From contig WJMA01000030.1 in assembly GCA_014728175.1 (NCBI GenBank), positions 1-33,308 of the forward strand: a stretch of 33,308 nt of DNA, written 5' to 3'. The first letter of the stretch is position 1; each line of letters starts with the position of its first letter. Both the position numbers and the translations under genes were made by a program. This DNA is from Candidatus Fermentibacterota bacterium. Lineage in GTDB: Bacteria > Fermentibacterota > Fermentibacteria > Fermentibacterales > JCC-6. Below are positions 16,824 to 27,821 of this stretch, piece after piece. The notes beneath the pieces were generated by a model, which did no database searches, was not told the origin of the DNA, and was given only the letters and a program-made list of their open reading frames with translations.

Positions 16824-19190
16824 TTAGCGTATCACCATCACACTGGCGACACCGGCGAAGGCATCGGTGGATACCCTGACCTTGTACAGGCCGGCGGGTA
16901 CCGCCTCGGCGCCCTCGGCGACGTTCCAGATGAGACTGTGATCGCCCTGGGCCATGTTGCCATCGGCCAGCGTGGCGACCTTGCGGCCGCTGAGATCGAA
17001 TATCTCGACCGTGACGTGGCCGGGCTGGGCCAGGGTGAACGGAACGGTAGCCGTGCTCAGAGCGGGGCTCGGGAACACGTTACCGACACCGTTGGTGTAA
17101 ACTCTCTCGCCTTCCTCGACCACGCCGACATCGCAATCGATGGTGCCCTCGTAGGGAAGGTGGTTGTGCTTGGTAGCGACCACCGTCATGGTGCCTGCGC
17201 TTTGAGGGTTGACGTACAGCGTGACCTCACCGGACGAGTCGGTGTAGCCCGTCTCGTACACCTCACCGCTCTGCCAGTCGCCCTTCTGCAGGCACACCAA
17301 TGCGTCCTGCACCGGAGCCTTGCTGTCGCTGACCGTGATGGTGACGTTGGTGGCCCCACCGACGTAGGACGGATGGCTCGCGGTCAACCTGGGCGCGTCC
17401 TCGGTGTACATGGATATCTCGGGATCACCGAGAAGATTGTACTCCTTGATACAGAAATCCATGTAGCTGTCGGAGGGCGGGCACAGGTTGTTCATGCTGG
17501 TGGAGTGCGCGGGGCCCAGCTGTATCGTGTTGCTTACCCAGTGCTCTTCGTAGAACTCCCTGCAGACGACCTCGCTCGGGCCCTGGCCCGGGTTGGAGGG
17601 CGTGCCCCAACCGTAACGGGCGTTGAACATGCCGAAGCCGGCTCCGCCTATGGAGTTGTTCCAGGCGTCGCCGCAGCACTCGTAGCTGTCGAGGTGACCT
17701 ATCAGGCAGGCGATCGAGTTCCAGATCGCCGGCAGGCCGCCGTCGGTGATGTTGGTCTGGTTCATTATGTCGTTGCGGGTGTAGCTGTCACCGTAGGAGG
17801 TGTACATCGACTGCTGCGAGCCGTGGCTGGCGTGGTAGACGTGATGAGGACCGTCGTCGATCATGTTGATGGTGATCGTGGAGCTGTTGTTGCCCCAGTC
17901 CTCGTAACACTTCTCCTCTTCCCAGCTGCTGTTGGGCACGTAGTCCGATATGTTCTCCGCGCCCGCGCTTCCGGGGCAGTAGGGAGACGTCCAAAGGATG
18001 CCCGTGGAGTAGCCGACGCGCATCTCTATGGGCGCGGTCTCGAAGTAGTCGGTTCCCTGAACGGCCTCGTAGGCCATCACCTTGTCTACGAACTCCGCGG
18101 CGTCGGACGAGCTGTTCACGCTGGCCCGGCCGGTCCAGATGTCAGGGTTCCAATCGATGTTGTCGCCGCTCTCGCCCCAGACACCGTTGCCGTTGCTGTC
18201 CCACTGGTCGGCGCCGGGGGCCGTGTCGTTGATGTCCACCCAGTACAGGTCGACCGGGGGATACTCGGTGTAACCGCCGGCGGAGATTATCACGTCACGT
18301 CCGGCGATCCTGTCGTCGTCACCGTAGATGAGAGCGAACTCGGCGCCCTCCTCTATCGCCTCCAGCAGGAATCCGCGGATGTCCTGCTGCAGGTCGAGGG
18401 TGTTGTAGTTGTTGTCCACCCAGGTCTCGGTGTAGACGTTGCAGGGTACGCCCTTCATGGTCTTCCAGTCGGCGATCTCCTGCGCGTAGGACTCGTAGGA
18501 GTCGTCGGTTATTATCACGTACTCGCCGTAAGCGAGTTCCCTCTTGTCCACGATGGCCGCGCCGGAGGCGGATACGCCCTCGGGGTTGGCGACCATGTTG
18601 CGAACTATGCTCTGGGCCCTCTGCTCGCTATCCGCCGACCTTCTCCTGACGGTCATAACCGACTCGTCGTACTCGTAGCTAACCTTGATCCTGAGATTGG
18701 ACAGGACCCGGATCTGACCATCGGCCGCGTTCCAACGCACGGGATAGACCGTGTAGGTAGCTATGGGTATTCCCATGAAGACGCTGGAGTTCTCGAGCTC
18801 GATGACTCTGTCGGGTACGGTCACGTCGCGCTCGTAGATATGGGGGTCGGGGGCGACGGGATGAATCTCCTGCTCGACCGAGATGGGGACCGGAGCCATG
18901 GCGGGCATGACCAGGTGCTTCCCGGGCAGAGTGGTGTACTCGGCCTCGAGAACCTCCATGTCGGTCGCCCTACATGCCGTGGGCAGAGCCACCCGAGCCT
19001 TCATTATTGGAAGACACGGGGCCCCCTCCTGGGTGATGTAGGAGACGCTGGGAACGTTGATTCTGGTGTAGGGCCCAGCCTCGTCCAGCACCACGGAGGA
19101 CTGGTCGAACGGGATGTCTACGACCAGCTCGGACGCCACAACGGGCATTGCCAGAAGCAACGTCAGAGCCAGGAAAGAAAGAATCCTCAT
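16824..19190 (-). CDS. Secreted gingipain-type (C25 family) cysteine protease with C-terminal sorting domain
   Basis: A 788-residue secreted endopeptidase. It has a signal peptide (1-20, ending VVAS), then an N-terminal prodomain-like region. The C25 catalytic region (about 215-600) starts at EYVIITDDSYESYAQEI and includes YGDDDRI. Predicted catalytic residues are His456 in VYHASHGS and Cys495 in SIACLIGHLD, with spacing like gingipain R. An Ig-like domain follows (about 600-690), and then a FlgD/T9SS type A-like C-terminal domain (about 705-788) with VEIFDLSGRKVATL and GLYKVRV, ending VMVIR. The same kind of tail ends the deiminase at 26121-27821. ATG 19190 has GGTGAGGTGG upstream. Many Asp residues suggest bound calcium. 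P1 specificity cannot be read from sequence. Confidence 0.88.
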   Translation of the reverse strand: MRILSFLALTLLLAMPVVASELVVDIPFDQSSVVLDEAGPYTRINVPSVSYITQEGAPCLPIMKARVALPTACRATDMEVLEAEYTTLPGKHLVMPAMAPVPISVEQEIHPVAPDPHIYERDVTVPDRVIELENSSVFMGIPIATYTVYPVRWNAADGQIRVLSNLRIKVSYEYDESVMTVRRRSADSEQRAQSIVRNMVANPEGVSASGAAIVDKRELAYGEYVIITDDSYESYAQEIADWKTMKGVPCNVYTETWVDNNYNTLDLQQDIRGFLLEAIEEGAEFALIYGDDDRIAGRDVIISAGGYTEYPPVDLYWVDINDTAPGADQWDSNGNGVWGESGDNIDWNPDIWTGRASVNSSSDAAEFVDKVMAYEAVQGTDYFETAPIEMRVGYSTGILWTSPYCPGSAGAENISDYVPNSSWEEEKCYEDWGNNSSTITINMIDDGPHHVYHASHGSQQSMYTSYGDSYTRNDIMNQTNITDGGLPAIWNSIACLIGHLDSYECCGDAWNNSIGGAGFGMFNARYGWGTPSNPGQGPSEVVCREFYEEHWVSNTIQLGPAHSTSMNNLCPPSDSYMDFCIKEYNLLGDPEISMYTEDAPRLTASHPSYVGGATNVTITVSDSKAPVQDALVCLQKGDWQSGEVYETGYTDSSGEVTLYVNPQSAGTMTVVATKHNHLPYEGTIDCDVGVVEEGERVYTNGVGNVFPSPALSTATVPFTLAQPGHVTVEIFDLSGRKVATLADGNMAQGDHSLIWNVAEGAEAVPAGLYKVRVSTDAFAGVASVMVIR

Positions 19191-22755: not shown

Positions 22756-24840
22756 GTGACTGCAGATTCCCAGCGGCGGAGAATAGAGAGACATCCCATC
22801 CTGGAACCGCTTTCCGGCGAGGAGGTGGATTTCACCTTCAACGGCAGGACCCTGAAGGGCAGAAGGGGCGAGGTGGTCTCGTCTGCGCTGTTCGCATCCG
22901 GCATTAGGATTTTCGGGCACCATCCCGAGGACGGAAGCTCCCAGGGGATGTTCTGCGCCAACGGGCAGTGCTCACAATGCTCGGTCCTGGTGAACGGGGT
23001 TCCGGTAAAGGGGTGCATAGTACCTCTCGAGGAGGGCATGGACGTCAGGAGCATGGACGGCCTTCCCCAGCTTCCGAACCAATCCTGCCCCCCGTATTCC
23101 CAACCCGTTGAGGTTGAGACGGACGTTCTGGTGCTGGGGGCCGGACCCTCCGGAATGGCGGCTGCCATCGAGCTGGGACGGGCCGGCGTGGACACCCTGA
23201 TCGTGGACGACAAGAGCGAGCCGGGAGGCAAGCTGGTCCTTCAGACCCACAAGTTCTTCGGCTCGGTAGAGGACTGCAGGGCCGGAACCAGAGGGATTCA
23301 CCTGGCCAGATGGCTCTACGATGAGCTCTCCGAGCACGACTCGGTTCAGCTGTGGCTGGACAGCATTGCCCTGGCGGTGTACAGCGACGGCAAGGTGGGC
23401 GTCCGTTGTCCCCGGGGGTATAGGCTGGTCGTTCCCCGCCACATCCTGGTGGCCACCGGGGCCAGGGAGCTGTCCCTATCGTTTCCCGGCAACGCGCTAC
23501 CCGGCGTTTACGGCGCGGGTGCCTTCCAGACCCTGGTCAACCGCGACCGGATAAGGTCCTCCGAGCGGCTGTTCGTGGTGGGAGGGGGAAACGTCGGCCT
23601 TATTGCGGCCTACCATGCCCTTCAGGCAGACATGACCGTGGTAGGGCTGGCCGAGGCTCTTCCCGAGTGCGGCGGCTACTACGTCCACGCCGACAAGATA
23701 CGGAGGCTGGGAGTGCCCATATACACCCGGCACACGGTGGTGGCGGCGCACGGAGAGGAACATCTGGAGGCGGTCACCATAGCCGAGGTGGATGACGAGT
23801 TCCATCCCCTACCGGGTACCGAGAGGAGCTTCCGGGTGGATACCCTGCTGGTGGCGGTGGGACTGGATCCGGTGGACGAGTTCGCCCGGAAGGCGGAGGA
23901 GTTCGGGATACCCGTGCTCAGTGCCGGCGATGCGGAGGAGATAGCCGAGGCCAGCGCGGCGATGTTCACCGGAAGAACGAGGGGCAGGCAGATAGCCTGC
24001 TCCCTCGGAGCCTCCGACCGGGAGTGCCCGTCGGACTGGCGGGAGAAGGCGGAGGTGCTCAAGCAACCCGGGGGAAAGGTCCATCCCTACCGGGTTCCAG
24101 AGCATTCGGAGGGAGTGTTTCCGGTTCTGCACTGCAACCAGGAGATCCCGTGCAATCCCTGTATCACATCCTGCCCTCTGGAGCTGATTCGTACAGAAGG
24201 GCATCCCATACTGGGAATTCCGGAGTTCGAGGGAAAGTGCTCGGGATGCCTGAGATGCGTGGCCATCTGCCCCGGCCTGGCCGTAACCCTGGTCGATTAC
24301 AGGAAGGATAATCAAAGGCCCGGGGTGGTGGTCCCCTTCGAGCTGGGAGAATGGAGGCTGCGCGAGGGAGAGAGCATGGATCTGACCGACATGAAGGGCG
24401 AGGTCCTGGGGAAGGGAATGCTGAGAAGGGTCACCAAAGCTCCCGGCAGCCCCCAGACCCTCCTGCTGCACCTGGATGTTGACGCCTCGTTCGCCAACCG
24501 GGTGGCCGGGGTAAGGGTGCAGGATCCGTCCCAGGTGGAGCCGCTTCCGGAGCCGCTTCCGGTTCCCATCGCCGACGATGCCGTCGCATGCCGCTGCGAG
24601 AGAGTCACCGCGGGCGAGATAAGAAGGCACCTTCGCGGCGGCGTAAGGGACCTCAACGAGCTCAAAGCATTAACCAGGGCCGGCTTCGGAGCCTGCGGCG
24701 GTAAGACCTGCAAGCCCCTGATCGCTCGTTTGTGCCGGGAGGAGGGCATACCTCCTGAGCAGCTGGAGGGTCTCACCGAAAGGCCATTGTTCGCCGAGAC
24801 CCGGCTGGGGTTCTTCTGTGGAGGGGCGGAGGACCGGTGA
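22756..24840 (+). CDS. Flavoprotein dehydrogenase alpha subunit with 2Fe-2S, 4Fe-4S and BFD-like domains
   Basis: A 694-residue relative of sarcosine oxidase alpha, HcnA/HcnB and dye-linked proline dehydrogenase alpha. In order: a plant-type [2Fe-2S] domain with Cys67, 72, 75 and 87 (CX4CX2CX11C); an FAD Rossmann motif VLGAGPSGMAAAIE (about 127); a second nucleotide-binding motif FVVGGGNVGL (about 275); two [4Fe-4S] motifs, CNQEIPCNPCITSCP and CSGCLRCVAICP; and a C-terminal BFD-like [2Fe-2S] domain (CRCERV...GGKTCK). In related complexes the parts are separate subunits, so this is a fusion. The start is GTG 22756 with GAAAGG upstream. It overlaps the beta subunit (GTGA). The substrate is probably an imino or N-methyl amino acid; its identity is not readable. 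Confidence 0.85.
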   Translation: MTADSQRRRIERHPILEPLSGEEVDFTFNGRTLKGRRGEVVSSALFASGIRIFGHHPEDGSSQGMFCANGQCSQCSVLVNGVPVKGCIVPLEEGMDVRSMDGLPQLPNQSCPPYSQPVEVETDVLVLGAGPSGMAAAIELGRAGVDTLIVDDKSEPGGKLVLQTHKFFGSVEDCRAGTRGIHLARWLYDELSEHDSVQLWLDSIALAVYSDGKVGVRCPRGYRLVVPRHILVATGARELSLSFPGNALPGVYGAGAFQTLVNRDRIRSSERLFVVGGGNVGLIAAYHALQADMTVVGLAEALPECGGYYVHADKIRRLGVPIYTRHTVVAAHGEEHLEAVTIAEVDDEFHPLPGTERSFRVDTLLVAVGLDPVDEFARKAEEFGIPVLSAGDAEEIAEASAAMFTGRTRGRQIACSLGASDRECPSDWREKAEVLKQPGGKVHPYRVPEHSEGVFPVLHCNQEIPCNPCITSCPLELIRTEGHPILGIPEFEGKCSGCLRCVAICPGLAVTLVDYRKDNQRPGVVVPFELGEWRLREGESMDLTDMKGEVLGKGMLRRVTKAPGSPQTLLLHLDVDASFANRVAGVRVQDPSQVEPLPEPLPVPIADDAVACRCERVTAGEIRRHLRGGVRDLNELKALTRAGFGACGGKTCKPLIARLCREEGIPPEQLEGLTERPLFAETRLGFFCGGAEDR

Positions 24841-25982
24841 GCTCCTACGACGTGGTGGTCATCGGTGCGGGGAGCGTGGGAACGCCTTTGTCCATGGAGC
24901 TGGCGGAGCGGGGCCTAAGGGTCCTGTGCCTGGACCGGGAGGCATCGGCGGGGCGGGGAAACAACCGCTGCGCCATAGGGGGGATAAGGGCTACCCACAG
25001 CGAGCCGGCCAAGGTATCGCTGTGCCTGAGGTCCCTGGAGGTCTTCGGGAGCTGGGAGGAAACCTACGGGGACGATATAGGCTGGAGGGAGGGCGGCTAC
25101 TGCTACGTCGCCTACGATGACCGGACCAGGTCCCTTCTGCGGGGCATAGTCAGCGACCAGCGCAAGGCGGGCCTGTCCATAACCTGGAACGACCCCTCGG
25201 TAATACTGGAGCTGGTACCGGGCATCAGGGAGGAGGGGTTGCTGGGAGGTACGTACTCCCCCCACGACGGCAGCGCGAATCCCATGCAGGCCTGCTACGC
25301 CTTCCACCGCAGAGCGGCGAACCTGGGAGCGGAGTTCGGCTTTGGGGAGACCGTCCTGGGTTTGGAAGCCGGCGAAAGCCGGGCCATGGTCCGTACCGAC
25401 CGGGGCGAGTACGAATGCGGAAGCGTAGTCAACTGCGCCGGCTCGCATGCCCGGGACCTGGGCAGTATGGTGGGAGTCGATTTGCCGGTGAATCCGGACA
25501 GTCACGAGGCGGGAATCACCGAGCCGGTCGAGATATTCTTCGGTCCCATGGTGGTGGACATACGCAAAGGGCCCGGGTCGGCGAACTACTACTTCTACCA
25601 GCATGCCACCGGGCAGGTGGTCTTCTGTATAACTCCCGATCCGGTTATTCCCGGAACGGACGACAGGGAGACGTCCGAGTTCTTACCCATGGTCAGCCGC
25701 AGGATGGTGGATCTCTATCCCCGCCTGGGCAATCTCAAGGTCAGGAGAACCTGGCGGGGATGCTACCCCCAGACGCCCGACGGCTCGCCCATACTGGGTC
25801 GGTGCGGCTCGGAGAGCCATTACGTGGCCGTCGGAATGTGCGGCCAGGGTTTCATGCTGGGTCCCGGCGTGGCCTCGTTGATGGCCAGGCTGATTACGGG
25901 GGAGTCCACATCGGATGACGCCGCGGTACTCCGGGAGCTGGGCCCGGACAGGGACTTCGGCTCGGAGGAAGCTCTCAAATAG
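24837..25982 (+). CDS. FAD-dependent amine/imino-acid dehydrogenase beta subunit (DAO family)
   Basis: A D-amino-acid-oxidase/GlpD-type flavoprotein of 381 residues, forming the substrate-oxidising half of the complex with 22756-24840. It shows the FAD motif VVVIGAGSVGTPLSMELA, the acidic ribose contact in LCLDRE, and NRCAIGGIRATHSEPAK, typical of sarcosine oxidase beta and HcnC. A C-terminal GRCGSESHYVAVGMCGQGFMLGPG (in parts) closes the FAD site. The GTG start sits within the stop of the alpha gene, implying translational coupling. Candidate substrates are proline, hydroxyproline, sarcosine or glycine; choosing between them needs a phylogeny. Confidence 0.86.
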   Translation: MSSYDVVVIGAGSVGTPLSMELAERGLRVLCLDREASAGRGNNRCAIGGIRATHSEPAKVSLCLRSLEVFGSWEETYGDDIGWREGGYCYVAYDDRTRSLLRGIVSDQRKAGLSITWNDPSVILELVPGIREEGLLGGTYSPHDGSANPMQACYAFHRRAANLGAEFGFGETVLGLEAGESRAMVRTDRGEYECGSVVNCAGSHARDLGSMVGVDLPVNPDSHEAGITEPVEIFFGPMVVDIRKGPGSANYYFYQHATGQVVFCITPDPVIPGTDDRETSEFLPMVSRRMVDLYPRLGNLKVRRTWRGCYPQTPDGSPILGRCGSESHYVAVGMCGQGFMLGPGVASLMARLITGESTSDDAAVLRELGPDRDFGSEEALK

Positions 25983-26120
25983 CCTCCCGTACGATCCGCC
26001 CTCAACCCCGGTGGATGGACAGACGTCTTCGAACCATGCATATCAAATCCGGTTATGGAATTCCCCGCCGCGTGCTTCTGGGGAAAGGATTATGGTTTTG
26101 GTCCGACGGGAGGATCTGCA

Positions 26121-27821
26121 ATGAGGCTGCTCGTTCTGACGGTTGCCGTGTTGACCACCGCTGCCTGGGCGGTGGATGTCGAAGGCGGAAGGGGAGAGCC
26201 ACTCCCCATAGGTTTCACCGAGGAGGAGCTCACCCGGCTGGACGAGATAGGGCTGGGCTCGCCGGAGCCCACCTCGCCTCCTCCCGACGGCACCCGCAAT
26301 CCCGGGGAGTTCGAGGCGGCCACCGGTGTTTTCATCGTCTACGACCCCTCCTCCTGGAGCTTCGGCGTACCCGACCAGCTGATGGTAGATCTGTCCAACG
26401 ACGACGAGCTGTGGGTAATCTGCGAGTCCGGCTCCCAGTCCTCGGCGGAGAGCGATCTGATTGCCGCGGGCGTCAACATGTCCAACGTAAGCTACCTCAA
26501 CGCTCCTCTGGACTCTTGGTGGATAAGGGATTACGGCCCGTGGTTCGTGCATTTGGAGGACGGCACCCAGGCCATCTTCAACTACGATTACAACCGTCCC
26601 CGCCCCAACGACAACGATATCCCTGTGGTCGTGGGTTCCGAATGGGGCCTGGACGTTTACACCTCCGAGGTGGTCCATACCGGAGGCAACTACATGTCCG
26701 GCGGTTTGGAGCAGGCCATGTCCACCGAGCTGGTCTACGACGAGAACGGAGGCAACCAGGACTGGGTGGACACCCAGATGGAGCTGTATCTGGGCATAGA
26801 TGACTACGTGACCATGGAGGATCCGCAGAGCAGCTACATAGATCACATCGACTGCTGGGGCAAGATCCTCAGCCCCACCAGGGTAATGGTCCTGGAGGTT
26901 CCTCCCAGTCATCCCGATTACTCGGGCCTGGAGTCGGTGGCGGACATGCTGGCCAACACCCAGAATCCCTACGGGACTTACTGGGACGTGTACAGGGTTT
27001 ACTCCAGCGGTACCGAAGGGTACTCCAACAGCCTTATAACCAACGACAACGTGTACATGCCCACCTGGAACACTTCCAACGATTCGCCGGCGATAATCGC
27101 CTACGAGGAGGCCCTTCCCGGCTACACGGTCCGGGGCTACTACTTCAGCGACTTCAGCAATACCGATGCCCTGCACTGCAGAACCAGGAACGTCATAGAC
27201 AGGTACATGCTCTGGATAAACCATTTGCCGGTGGACTCGCTCCAGTTGCCCGACTCACCGGTGGGGATCGACGCTCTGATACGGTGTCATCCCGATCACA
27301 GCCTGACCTCTACCACGGTGTACTATCGCGTCGGCACCAGCGGATCCTTCACCTCCCTTTCCATGGCCTCCACGGGAGCCGACAGCTTTCATGCCGACAT
27401 ACCCGGCCAGTCTCAGGGCAGCCTGATTCAGTACTACGTGGCGGCGTCGGACAACTCGGGACGGAACGAGAGACACCCCAGATTCGCGCCTGATACGTGG
27501 TGCCACGAGTACCAGGTGGAGCAGACCGGCAGCCACGAAGGACGGGAGGCCGTACCGGGAATCCGGATGGCCGACCCGGCGCCCAATCCCTTCGGCGACG
27601 TTACCAACCTAAGCGTCTCCCTGGCCTCCGGCTGCGACATGGAGCTGGCGGTCTACGATCTGTCGGGCAGGAAGATAGACGTCATCTACAGCGGGCACTC
27701 AGGCGCGGGGGCGCACGTCGTAAGCTGGAGCCCCTCCGCGGAGGTGCCCAACGGGGTCTACATGGTGAGGTTGAGCAGCGCGGACGGCGTGCTTACCAGA
27801 AGGGTAACCCTGATTCGCTGA
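26121..27821 (+). CDS. Secreted Porphyromonas-type peptidylarginine deiminase with Ig-like and sorting domains
   Basis: A 566-residue exported enzyme converting peptidyl-arginine to citrulline. The signal peptide MRLLVLTVAVLTTAAWAVD is followed by a short propeptide and the PAD_porph catalytic domain (about 70-365). It contains WWIRDYGPW (Asp137), YNRPRP (Arg159, Arg161), HTGGN (186-190), DHIDCW (His242, Asp244), Asn303 and ALHCRT (Cys353). Spacings match P. gingivalis PPAD (Asp130, Arg152/154, His236, Asp238, Asn297, Cys351, recalled from published structures). An Ig-like domain (about 375-475) and a FlgD/T9SS-type C-terminal domain (about 490-566, YDLSGRKID, ending VTLIR) complete the PPAD layout. 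ATG 26121 has GGGAGG seven bases upstream. An agmatine deiminase is unlikely, given the signal peptide and the added domains. Confidence 0.88.
   Translation: MRLLVLTVAVLTTAAWAVDVEGGRGEPLPIGFTEEELTRLDEIGLGSPEPTSPPPDGTRNPGEFEAATGVFIVYDPSSWSFGVPDQLMVDLSNDDELWVICESGSQSSAESDLIAAGVNMSNVSYLNAPLDSWWIRDYGPWFVHLEDGTQAIFNYDYNRPRPNDNDIPVVVGSEWGLDVYTSEVVHTGGNYMSGGLEQAMSTELVYDENGGNQDWVDTQMELYLGIDDYVTMEDPQSSYIDHIDCWGKILSPTRVMVLEVPPSHPDYSGLESVADMLANTQNPYGTYWDVYRVYSSGTEGYSNSLITNDNVYMPTWNTSNDSPAIIAYEEALPGYTVRGYYFSDFSNTDALHCRTRNVIDRYMLWINHLPVDSLQLPDSPVGIDALIRCHPDHSLTSTTVYYRVGTSGSFTSLSMASTGADSFHADIPGQSQGSLIQYYVAASDNSGRNERHPRFAPDTWCHEYQVEQTGSHEGREAVPGIRMADPAPNPFGDVTNLSVSLASGCDMELAVYDLSGRKIDVIYSGHSGAGAHVVSWSPSAEVPNGVYMVRLSSADGVLTRRVTLIR

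What the first reader, a model, noticed from the sequence alone, without database searches (positions are those of the whole stretch)
26121..27821. PPAD-like secreted deiminase that keeps the arginine pair for C-terminal specificity
Domain order (signal, catalytic, Ig-like, sorting domain), total length (566 versus about 556) and catalytic residue spacing all match P. gingivalis PPAD. Arg159 and Arg161 sit 22 and 24 residues after Asp137, exactly as Arg152 and Arg154 do after Asp130 in PPAD, where they hold the substrate's C-terminal carboxylate. This predicts citrullination of C-terminal arginine in a bacterium unlikely to be an oral pathogen.
Basis: partly seen in the sequence, partly recalled or inferred. 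Interest (0 to 1): 0.65.

Follow-up and report, generated by a model that had tools for sequence, protein, structure and literature searches.

The report
PPAD-type secreted deiminase in Fermentibacterota
An uncultured environmental bacterium (phylum Fermentibacterota) encodes a secreted enzyme built like the citrullinating enzyme of the gum pathogen Porphyromonas gingivalis, arginine grip included, and related genes across three environmental phyla, sometimes beside a gingipain-like protease gene, suggest that this supposed oral virulence factor is an old and widespread extracellular enzyme.

Summary
The gene at 26121-27821 encodes 566 aa: signal peptide, PAD_porph catalytic domain, Ig-like domain and type IX sorting tail. 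It matches P. gingivalis PPAD at E 9e-82. The AlphaFold model superposes on PPAD crystals (TM 0.94, 1.8 A), well ahead of agmatine deiminases (0.68-0.78). Asp137, Arg159, Arg161, Tyr239, His242, Asp244, Asn303 and Cys353 align with PPAD's catalytic and carboxylate-binding residues. A tree separates both enzymes from agmatine deiminases (100/100; AU p 0.0003 and 0.0016).

The host is a Fermentibacterota genome with SprA and many T9SS tails. The gene occurs in 23 of 24 good genomes of its phylum. Relatives with the arginine pair occur in Zixibacteria and Marinimicrobia, and P. gingivalis PPAD falls with the Marinimicrobia proteins. In ten Zixibacteria or Marinimicrobia contigs the adjacent co-oriented gene (3-200 nt away) encodes an R-gingipain-like protease that keeps RgpB's Arg-selecting Asp163. 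The window genome has no clear R-gingipain, so its supplier of C-terminal arginine is unknown.

Best reading: a surface exodeiminase converting C-terminal arginine of peptides to citrulline plus ammonia. Activity is untested. The protein is a new member of a known kind; the breadth of the family and the protease linkage are the newer parts.

The parts
26121..27821 (+). PPAD-type secreted deiminase gene, 566 aa
26109..26115 (+). ribosome-binding site ggaggat, supports the 26121 start over the in-frame ATG at 26055
   Evidence: sequence read directly
26121..26171 (+). signal peptide, residues 1-17 (MRLLVLTVAVLTTAAWA)
   Evidence: sequence read directly; no signal-peptide predictor was available
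26172..26267 (+). N-terminal stretch, residues 18-49, with LPIGFTEEE (28-36), invariant in the 17 rows of alignment A1; possible pro-segment
   Evidence: the role is inference
26268..27200 (+). guanidino-modifying catalytic domain, residues 50-360
26529..26531 (+). Asp137 = PPAD Asp130
26595..26603 (+). Arg159-Pro-Arg161 = PPAD Arg152-x-Arg154, which bind the substrate's C-terminal carboxylate in PPAD
   Evidence: PPAD role from PMC4893104 and PMC4487231
26835..26855 (+). Tyr239, His242, Asp244, Cys245 = PPAD Tyr233, His236, Asp238, Cys239 (Michaelis loop and catalytic residues)
27027..27029 (+). Asn303 = PPAD Asn297
27177..27179 (+). Cys353 = PPAD nucleophile Cys351
27201..27494 (+). Ig-like domain, residues 361-458
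   Evidence: PPAD match runs to residue 458
27582..27806 (+). T9SS type A sorting domain, residues 488-562
   Evidence: TIGR04183, 35.2 bits, cut-off 23; at least 30 further tail-like matches in the genome
16824..19190 (-). C25 (gingipain-family) secreted protease, 788 aa, T9SS-type tail; in the conserved block C25/EF-G/soxA-like/DAO/PPAD of the phylum; lacks RgpB's Asp163

Best explanation
The protein is a PPAD-family peptidylarginine exodeiminase. It is exported by the Sec pathway, then by the type IX system through its C-terminal sorting tail, to the surface or medium. There Asp137 and Asp244 hold the guanidinium of a peptide's last arginine, Arg159, Arg161 and Tyr239 grip the free C-terminal carboxylate and so exclude internal arginines, and Cys353 with His242 and Asn303 hydrolyses it to citrulline plus ammonia. 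Shown: homology, fold, residues, tail, presence of a SprA translocon, placement among PPAD-like enzymes. Inferred: catalysis, exo-specificity, location. The protease that supplies C-terminal arginine in this organism is not identified.
For: PDB sequence search: PPAD 9e-82, next family 6e-10. Fold: PPAD TM 0.94, rmsd 1.8 A over 425 columns, agmatine deiminases 0.68-0.78. All five catalytic residues, both carboxylate arginines, Tyr233 and gatekeeper Cys239 aligned. Tree and AU tests. Sorting tail and SprA at 417 bits, cut-off 200. Retention in 23 of 24 good genomes of the phylum. In other phyla PPAD relatives sit directly next to RgpB-like proteases that, by inference from Asp163, cut after Arg. 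Roles of R152, R154 and Y233 by mutants and crystals of PPAD (PMC4893104, PMC4487231).
Against: No activity data exist. In Zixibacteria relatives Tyr233 is mostly Gly (24 of 27), so the carboxylate grip varies within the family. The arginine pair also occurs in a single-domain Marinimicrobia group with an agmatine-deiminase-like active site, so the pair alone does not prove peptide specificity. No R-gingipain-like protease was found in Fermentibacterota (best 31-33% identity).
Confidence: 0.83

Rival explanations
1. A secreted arginine- or agmatine-type deiminase: same fold and tail, but the arginine pair binds the carboxylate of free arginine, giving extracellular free-arginine or mixed deimination for ammonia, not peptide citrullination.
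For: PPAD also turns over free arginine slowly (PMC4893104, PMC4487231). The pair alone would bind any alpha-carboxylate, and the single-domain Marinimicrobia group combines the pair with an agmatine-deiminase-like loop.
Against: Sequence, fold and tree place it with PPAD and away from agmatine deiminases; Arg154, which also holds the preceding peptide carbonyl in PPAD, is kept.
Confidence: 0.12
2. A PPAD-type exodeiminase (same chemistry as the best explanation) whose real targets are the cell's own T9SS surface proteins, as a maturation or regulation step, and not foreign or nutrient peptides. This overlaps with the best explanation and differs only in the biological substrate.
For: Phylum-wide retention, many T9SS substrates in the genome, no R-gingipain-like partner in the phylum.
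Against: No known self substrate; in other phyla the partner gene is a protease.
Confidence: 0.2
3. A non-catalytic or decayed relative.
For: None found.
Against: Open frame in the relatives listed and catalytic residues invariant in the 31 Fermentibacterota rows, bar one row cut short at the Cys.
Confidence: 0.02

Closest known systems
Porphyromonas gingivalis peptidylarginine deiminase (PPAD, PDB 4yt9/4ytb/5ak7/6i0x)
   Same: Catalytic plus Ig-like domain superpose at 1.8 A; catalytic residues, R152/R154, Y233, C239 and the T9SS tail conserved.
   Different: About 33% identity in the structural alignment; PPAD positions 231/232/235 are S/S/D here instead of G/E/N; host is an uncultured Fermentibacterota in which no R-gingipain-like protease was found.
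Agmatine deiminases (TIGR03380, PDB 2jer, 2ewo, 6b10)
   Same: Same guanidino-modifying fold and Asp/His/Asp/Asn/Cys set.
   Different: No arginine pair (0/6), no Ig domain or sorting tail; the window protein scores 28 bits against a TIGR03380 cut-off of 382; separate clade 100/100.
Second secreted paralogue of Fermentibacterota, Zixibacteria and Marinimicrobia (L112-L116, L125-L129)
   Same: Secreted size, catalytic residues, 32-36% identity to the window protein in Fermentibacterota.
   Different: The position of R154 is Y/L/T and the loop carries an insertion, so binding of the substrate's end should differ.

Membership tests
PPAD (Porphyromonas-type peptidylarginine deiminase) | PAD_porph catalytic domain with Asp130, His236, Asp238, Asn297, Cys351 | tested here: met
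   D137, H242, D244, N303, C353
PPAD (Porphyromonas-type peptidylarginine deiminase) | Arg152, Arg154 and Tyr233 for the C-terminal carboxylate | tested here: met
   R159, R161, Y239
PPAD (Porphyromonas-type peptidylarginine deiminase) | Order signal, catalytic, Ig-like, T9SS tail | tested here: met
   signal peptide by eye only
PPAD (Porphyromonas-type peptidylarginine deiminase) | Groups with PPAD, not with agmatine deiminases | tested here: met
   within the PPAD-like set the window protein lies in its own Fermentibacterota clade and PPAD with Marinimicrobia
PPAD (Porphyromonas-type peptidylarginine deiminase) | Deiminates C-terminal, not internal, arginine | not testable with these tools
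   needs an enzyme assay
PPAD (Porphyromonas-type peptidylarginine deiminase) | Works with an Arg-specific gingipain of the same cell (a biological association, not a trait of the enzyme itself) | tested here: inconclusive
   no RgpB-like C25 found in the window genome or phylum, but another Arg-specific protease was not sought; the association is seen in Zixibacteria and Marinimicrobia relatives
Agmatine deiminase | Scores over the TIGR03380 cut-off and groups with agmatine deiminases | tested here: not met
R-gingipain (for the neighbouring Zixibacteria/Marinimicrobia proteases) | C25 domain nearest RgpB, with His211, Cys244 and S1 Asp163 | tested here: met
   L017 protease: RgpB 1cvr 1.8e-83 (284 bits) versus Kgp 53 bits; Asp163 in 10/10, His and Cys in the 9 not cut by a contig end; activity untested

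The most novel reading that the evidence does not exclude
PPAD and R-gingipain form an old 'cut after arginine, then citrullinate the new end' extracellular module of environmental FCB-group bacteria, encoded side by side in some Zixibacteria and Marinimicrobia, and P. gingivalis PPAD is a late host-associated member of that family and not a fusion assembled from an agmatine deiminase.
Probability: 0.55. Interest if true: 0.78.

Novelty: new member of a known kind. Interest (0 to 1): 0.58.

Why it matters
PPAD has been described as the only prokaryotic protein-citrullinating enzyme (PMC4487231) and as unique to pathogenic Porphyromonas (PMC6147916), and it is discussed as a trigger of rheumatoid arthritis. 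A complete PPAD architecture conserved through an environmental phylum, with relatives in further environmental phyla, would mean that protein citrullination is an ordinary extracellular chemistry of these bacteria, probably predating oral pathogens. It also gives a testable alternative to the proposed origin of PPAD by transfer of an agmatine deiminase followed by domain fusion. The adjacent RgpB-like gene supplies independent genomic evidence that protease and deiminase act as a pair.

Tried and rejected
Centring genome searches on locus ids failed until handles were obtained. No Bacteroidota genomes beyond PDB PPAD could be reached, because the one genome-contig scan used window-specific patterns, so the position of PPAD among Bacteroidota is not resolved. 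Viral contigs gave nothing. The window's own C25 protease was considered as the arginine-cutting partner and set aside: it has no Asp163, about 17% identity to RgpB, and with 20 C25 genes in 2.6 Mb a C25 within 8 kb is expected in roughly one genome in eight by chance, although the block is conserved in the phylum. One own-genome C25 (L222) shows an Asp at the 163 column in a gapped alignment at 23% identity; inconclusive. Three own-genome C25 rows (L217, L228, L229) appear to have been read in a wrong frame by the longest-ORF rule and carry no weight. Papers: no text on Fermentibacteria with this enzyme; Cummings 2021 (PMC8826395) states that pPAD genes are more widespread than thought (supplementary figure S4, not readable here), so breadth of distribution is not claimed as wholly new.

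Full report
Observation. The window is a whole contig (G000:C15, 33,308 bases) of a 2.6-Mb, 96% complete genome. The gene at 26121-27821 is open, 566 aa, with a clear ribosome-binding site. It has a hydrophobic signal sequence, a PAD_porph domain (6e-23), an Ig-like domain and a T9SS type A sorting domain (35.2 bits, cut-off 23).

Relation to PPAD. phmmer against PDB gives PPAD at 9.2e-82 over residues 50-458; the best agmatine-deiminase-like chain is 6e-10. The AlphaFold model (pLDDT 80.5, 17-row alignment A1) matches PPAD crystals with target TM 0.94 and 1.8 A over 425 columns, agmatine deiminases with 0.68-0.78. Column by column: D130->D137, R152->R159, R154->R161, G182->G189, Y233->Y239, H236->H242, D238->D244, C239->C245, N297->N303, C351->C353. 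In PPAD R152 makes a double salt bridge to the substrate carboxylate and is indispensable, R154 and Y233 add to it, and a C-terminal extension would clash (PMC4487231; PMC4893104).

Relatives. The nearest named genomes are Candidatus Fermentibacter, Aegiribacteria and Sabulitectum; the gene is in 33 of 42 genomes of the phylum and 23 of 24 of those at least 90% complete and at most 5% contaminated. Relatives occur in 51 of 132 genomes of the Zixibacteria phylum, 82 of 245 of the Marinimicrobia phylum (some single-domain) and 3 of 58 of another phylum. The arginine pair is present in 31/31, 27/27 and 25/25 of the rows aligned from the first three phyla, in 8/8 of the single-domain group, and in 0/6 agmatine deiminases. 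A second paralogue lacks R154. Tyr233 is kept in Fermentibacterota (28/31) and Marinimicrobia (25/25) but is mostly Gly in Zixibacteria (24/27).

Tree. With 72 catalytic domains, agmatine deiminases separate at 100/100; P. gingivalis PPAD falls with 16 Marinimicrobia rows at 100/100; the window protein lies in the Fermentibacterota clade at 95/98. Holding PPAD or the window protein with agmatine deiminases is rejected (AU p 0.0016 and 0.0003). PPAD has a long branch and no other Bacteroidota were reachable, so its exact neighbours are provisional. The result does not favour the proposal that PPAD arose by transfer of a single-domain agmatine deiminase and later fusion (PMC4487231), because the catalytic-Ig architecture is already present in relatives of three environmental phyla (matches through residue 453 or beyond).

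Export. The genome has a SprA translocon (417 bits, cut-off 200), PorU-like C25 proteins just below the curated cut-off and at least 30 tail-like matches. The Zixibacteria relatives examined often carry dockerin or other tails instead, so the way of display differs between phyla.

Neighbourhood. In Fermentibacterota the order C25 protease(-), EF-G(-), soxA-like, DAO, PPAD, and downstream DUF362(-), Alr, MBL, NamZ is conserved in pieces over several genera. The window's C25 protease (16824-19190, -) does not keep RgpB's Asp163, and the Fermentibacterota C25 domains reach only about 31-33% identity to the R-gingipain-like query.

Protease linkage elsewhere. In Zixibacteria L017, L020, L021, L208, L159, L162 the gene directly upstream of PPAD on the same strand, 50-200 nt away, is a gingipain; in L153 it is directly downstream (172 nt); in Marinimicrobia L179, L186 (76 nt) and L187 (3 nt) it is directly upstream. 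The L017 protease matches RgpB at 1.8e-83, 284 bits, Kgp at 53 bits, with pro-domain and C-terminal Ig domain. All ten keep Asp163; that this residue selects arginine in RgpB is established knowledge, not tested here. In seven genomes of this set (G043, G046, G094, G128, G235, G384, G386) 20 C25 domains that are not next to PPAD were sampled; none has the RgpB-like Asp163 (7/7 against 0/20, p 1e-6; related genomes, so not independent). RgpB-like proteases do occur away from PPAD in other genomes (G110, G134, G388, G390). Across 132 genomes of the Zixibacteria phylum, PPAD is in 51, RgpB-like in 50, both in 38 (expected 19; Fisher 5e-12 without correction for relatedness).

Conclusion. The window protein itself is a new member of a known kind. 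What lifts it is the phylum-wide retention and the recurrent gingipain-PPAD gene pair in environmental bacteria, for which no description was found in the papers searched; the paper library is partial.

Noticed in passing
L017 534-5717, L020 529-5715, L021 575-5797, L208, L159, L162, L153, L179, L186, L187: RgpB-like gingipain genes directly next to and co-oriented with the PPAD gene (3-200 nt) in Zixibacteria and Marinimicrobia, all with the S1 Asp163.
   Followed up: yes
window 16824-19190 (-): 788-aa C25 protease with gingipain-type propeptide and T9SS-type tail; one of 20 C25 genes in this genome; specificity unknown.
   Followed up: partly
Marinimicrobia relatives L092-L111: Most carry Asn, Thr and Asp at PPAD positions 231, 232 and 235 (21, 20 and 24 of 25), the same residues as a published natural high-activity P. 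gingivalis variant (PMC10991804), which suggests that state may be ancestral.
   Followed up: partly
window 26202-26228 (protein residues 28-36): LPIGFTEEE near the N-terminus is invariant in all 17 rows of A1 and lies before the part of the protein that matches crystallised PPAD; possible pro-segment or latency element.
   Followed up: no
L119-L124, L130, L131: Single-domain (434-448 aa) Marinimicrobia proteins with the NRPRP arginine pair but an agmatine-deiminase-like GHIDMF/GAIHCI active site; substrate unknown.
   Followed up: partly
L112-L116, L125-L129: Second secreted paralogue without Arg154 and with an insertion of up to about 120 residues in the carboxylate loop.
   Followed up: partly
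window 22756-25982: soxA-like plus DAO flavoprotein pair, syntenic with PPAD across Fermentibacterota; might be an amino-acid or opine-type oxidase; link to citrulline unknown.
   Followed up: partly
L026 1326-1764 (G000:C63): C-terminal remnant of an agmatine-deiminase-like gene (145-aa frame, no N-terminal half) in the window's genome.
   Followed up: partly
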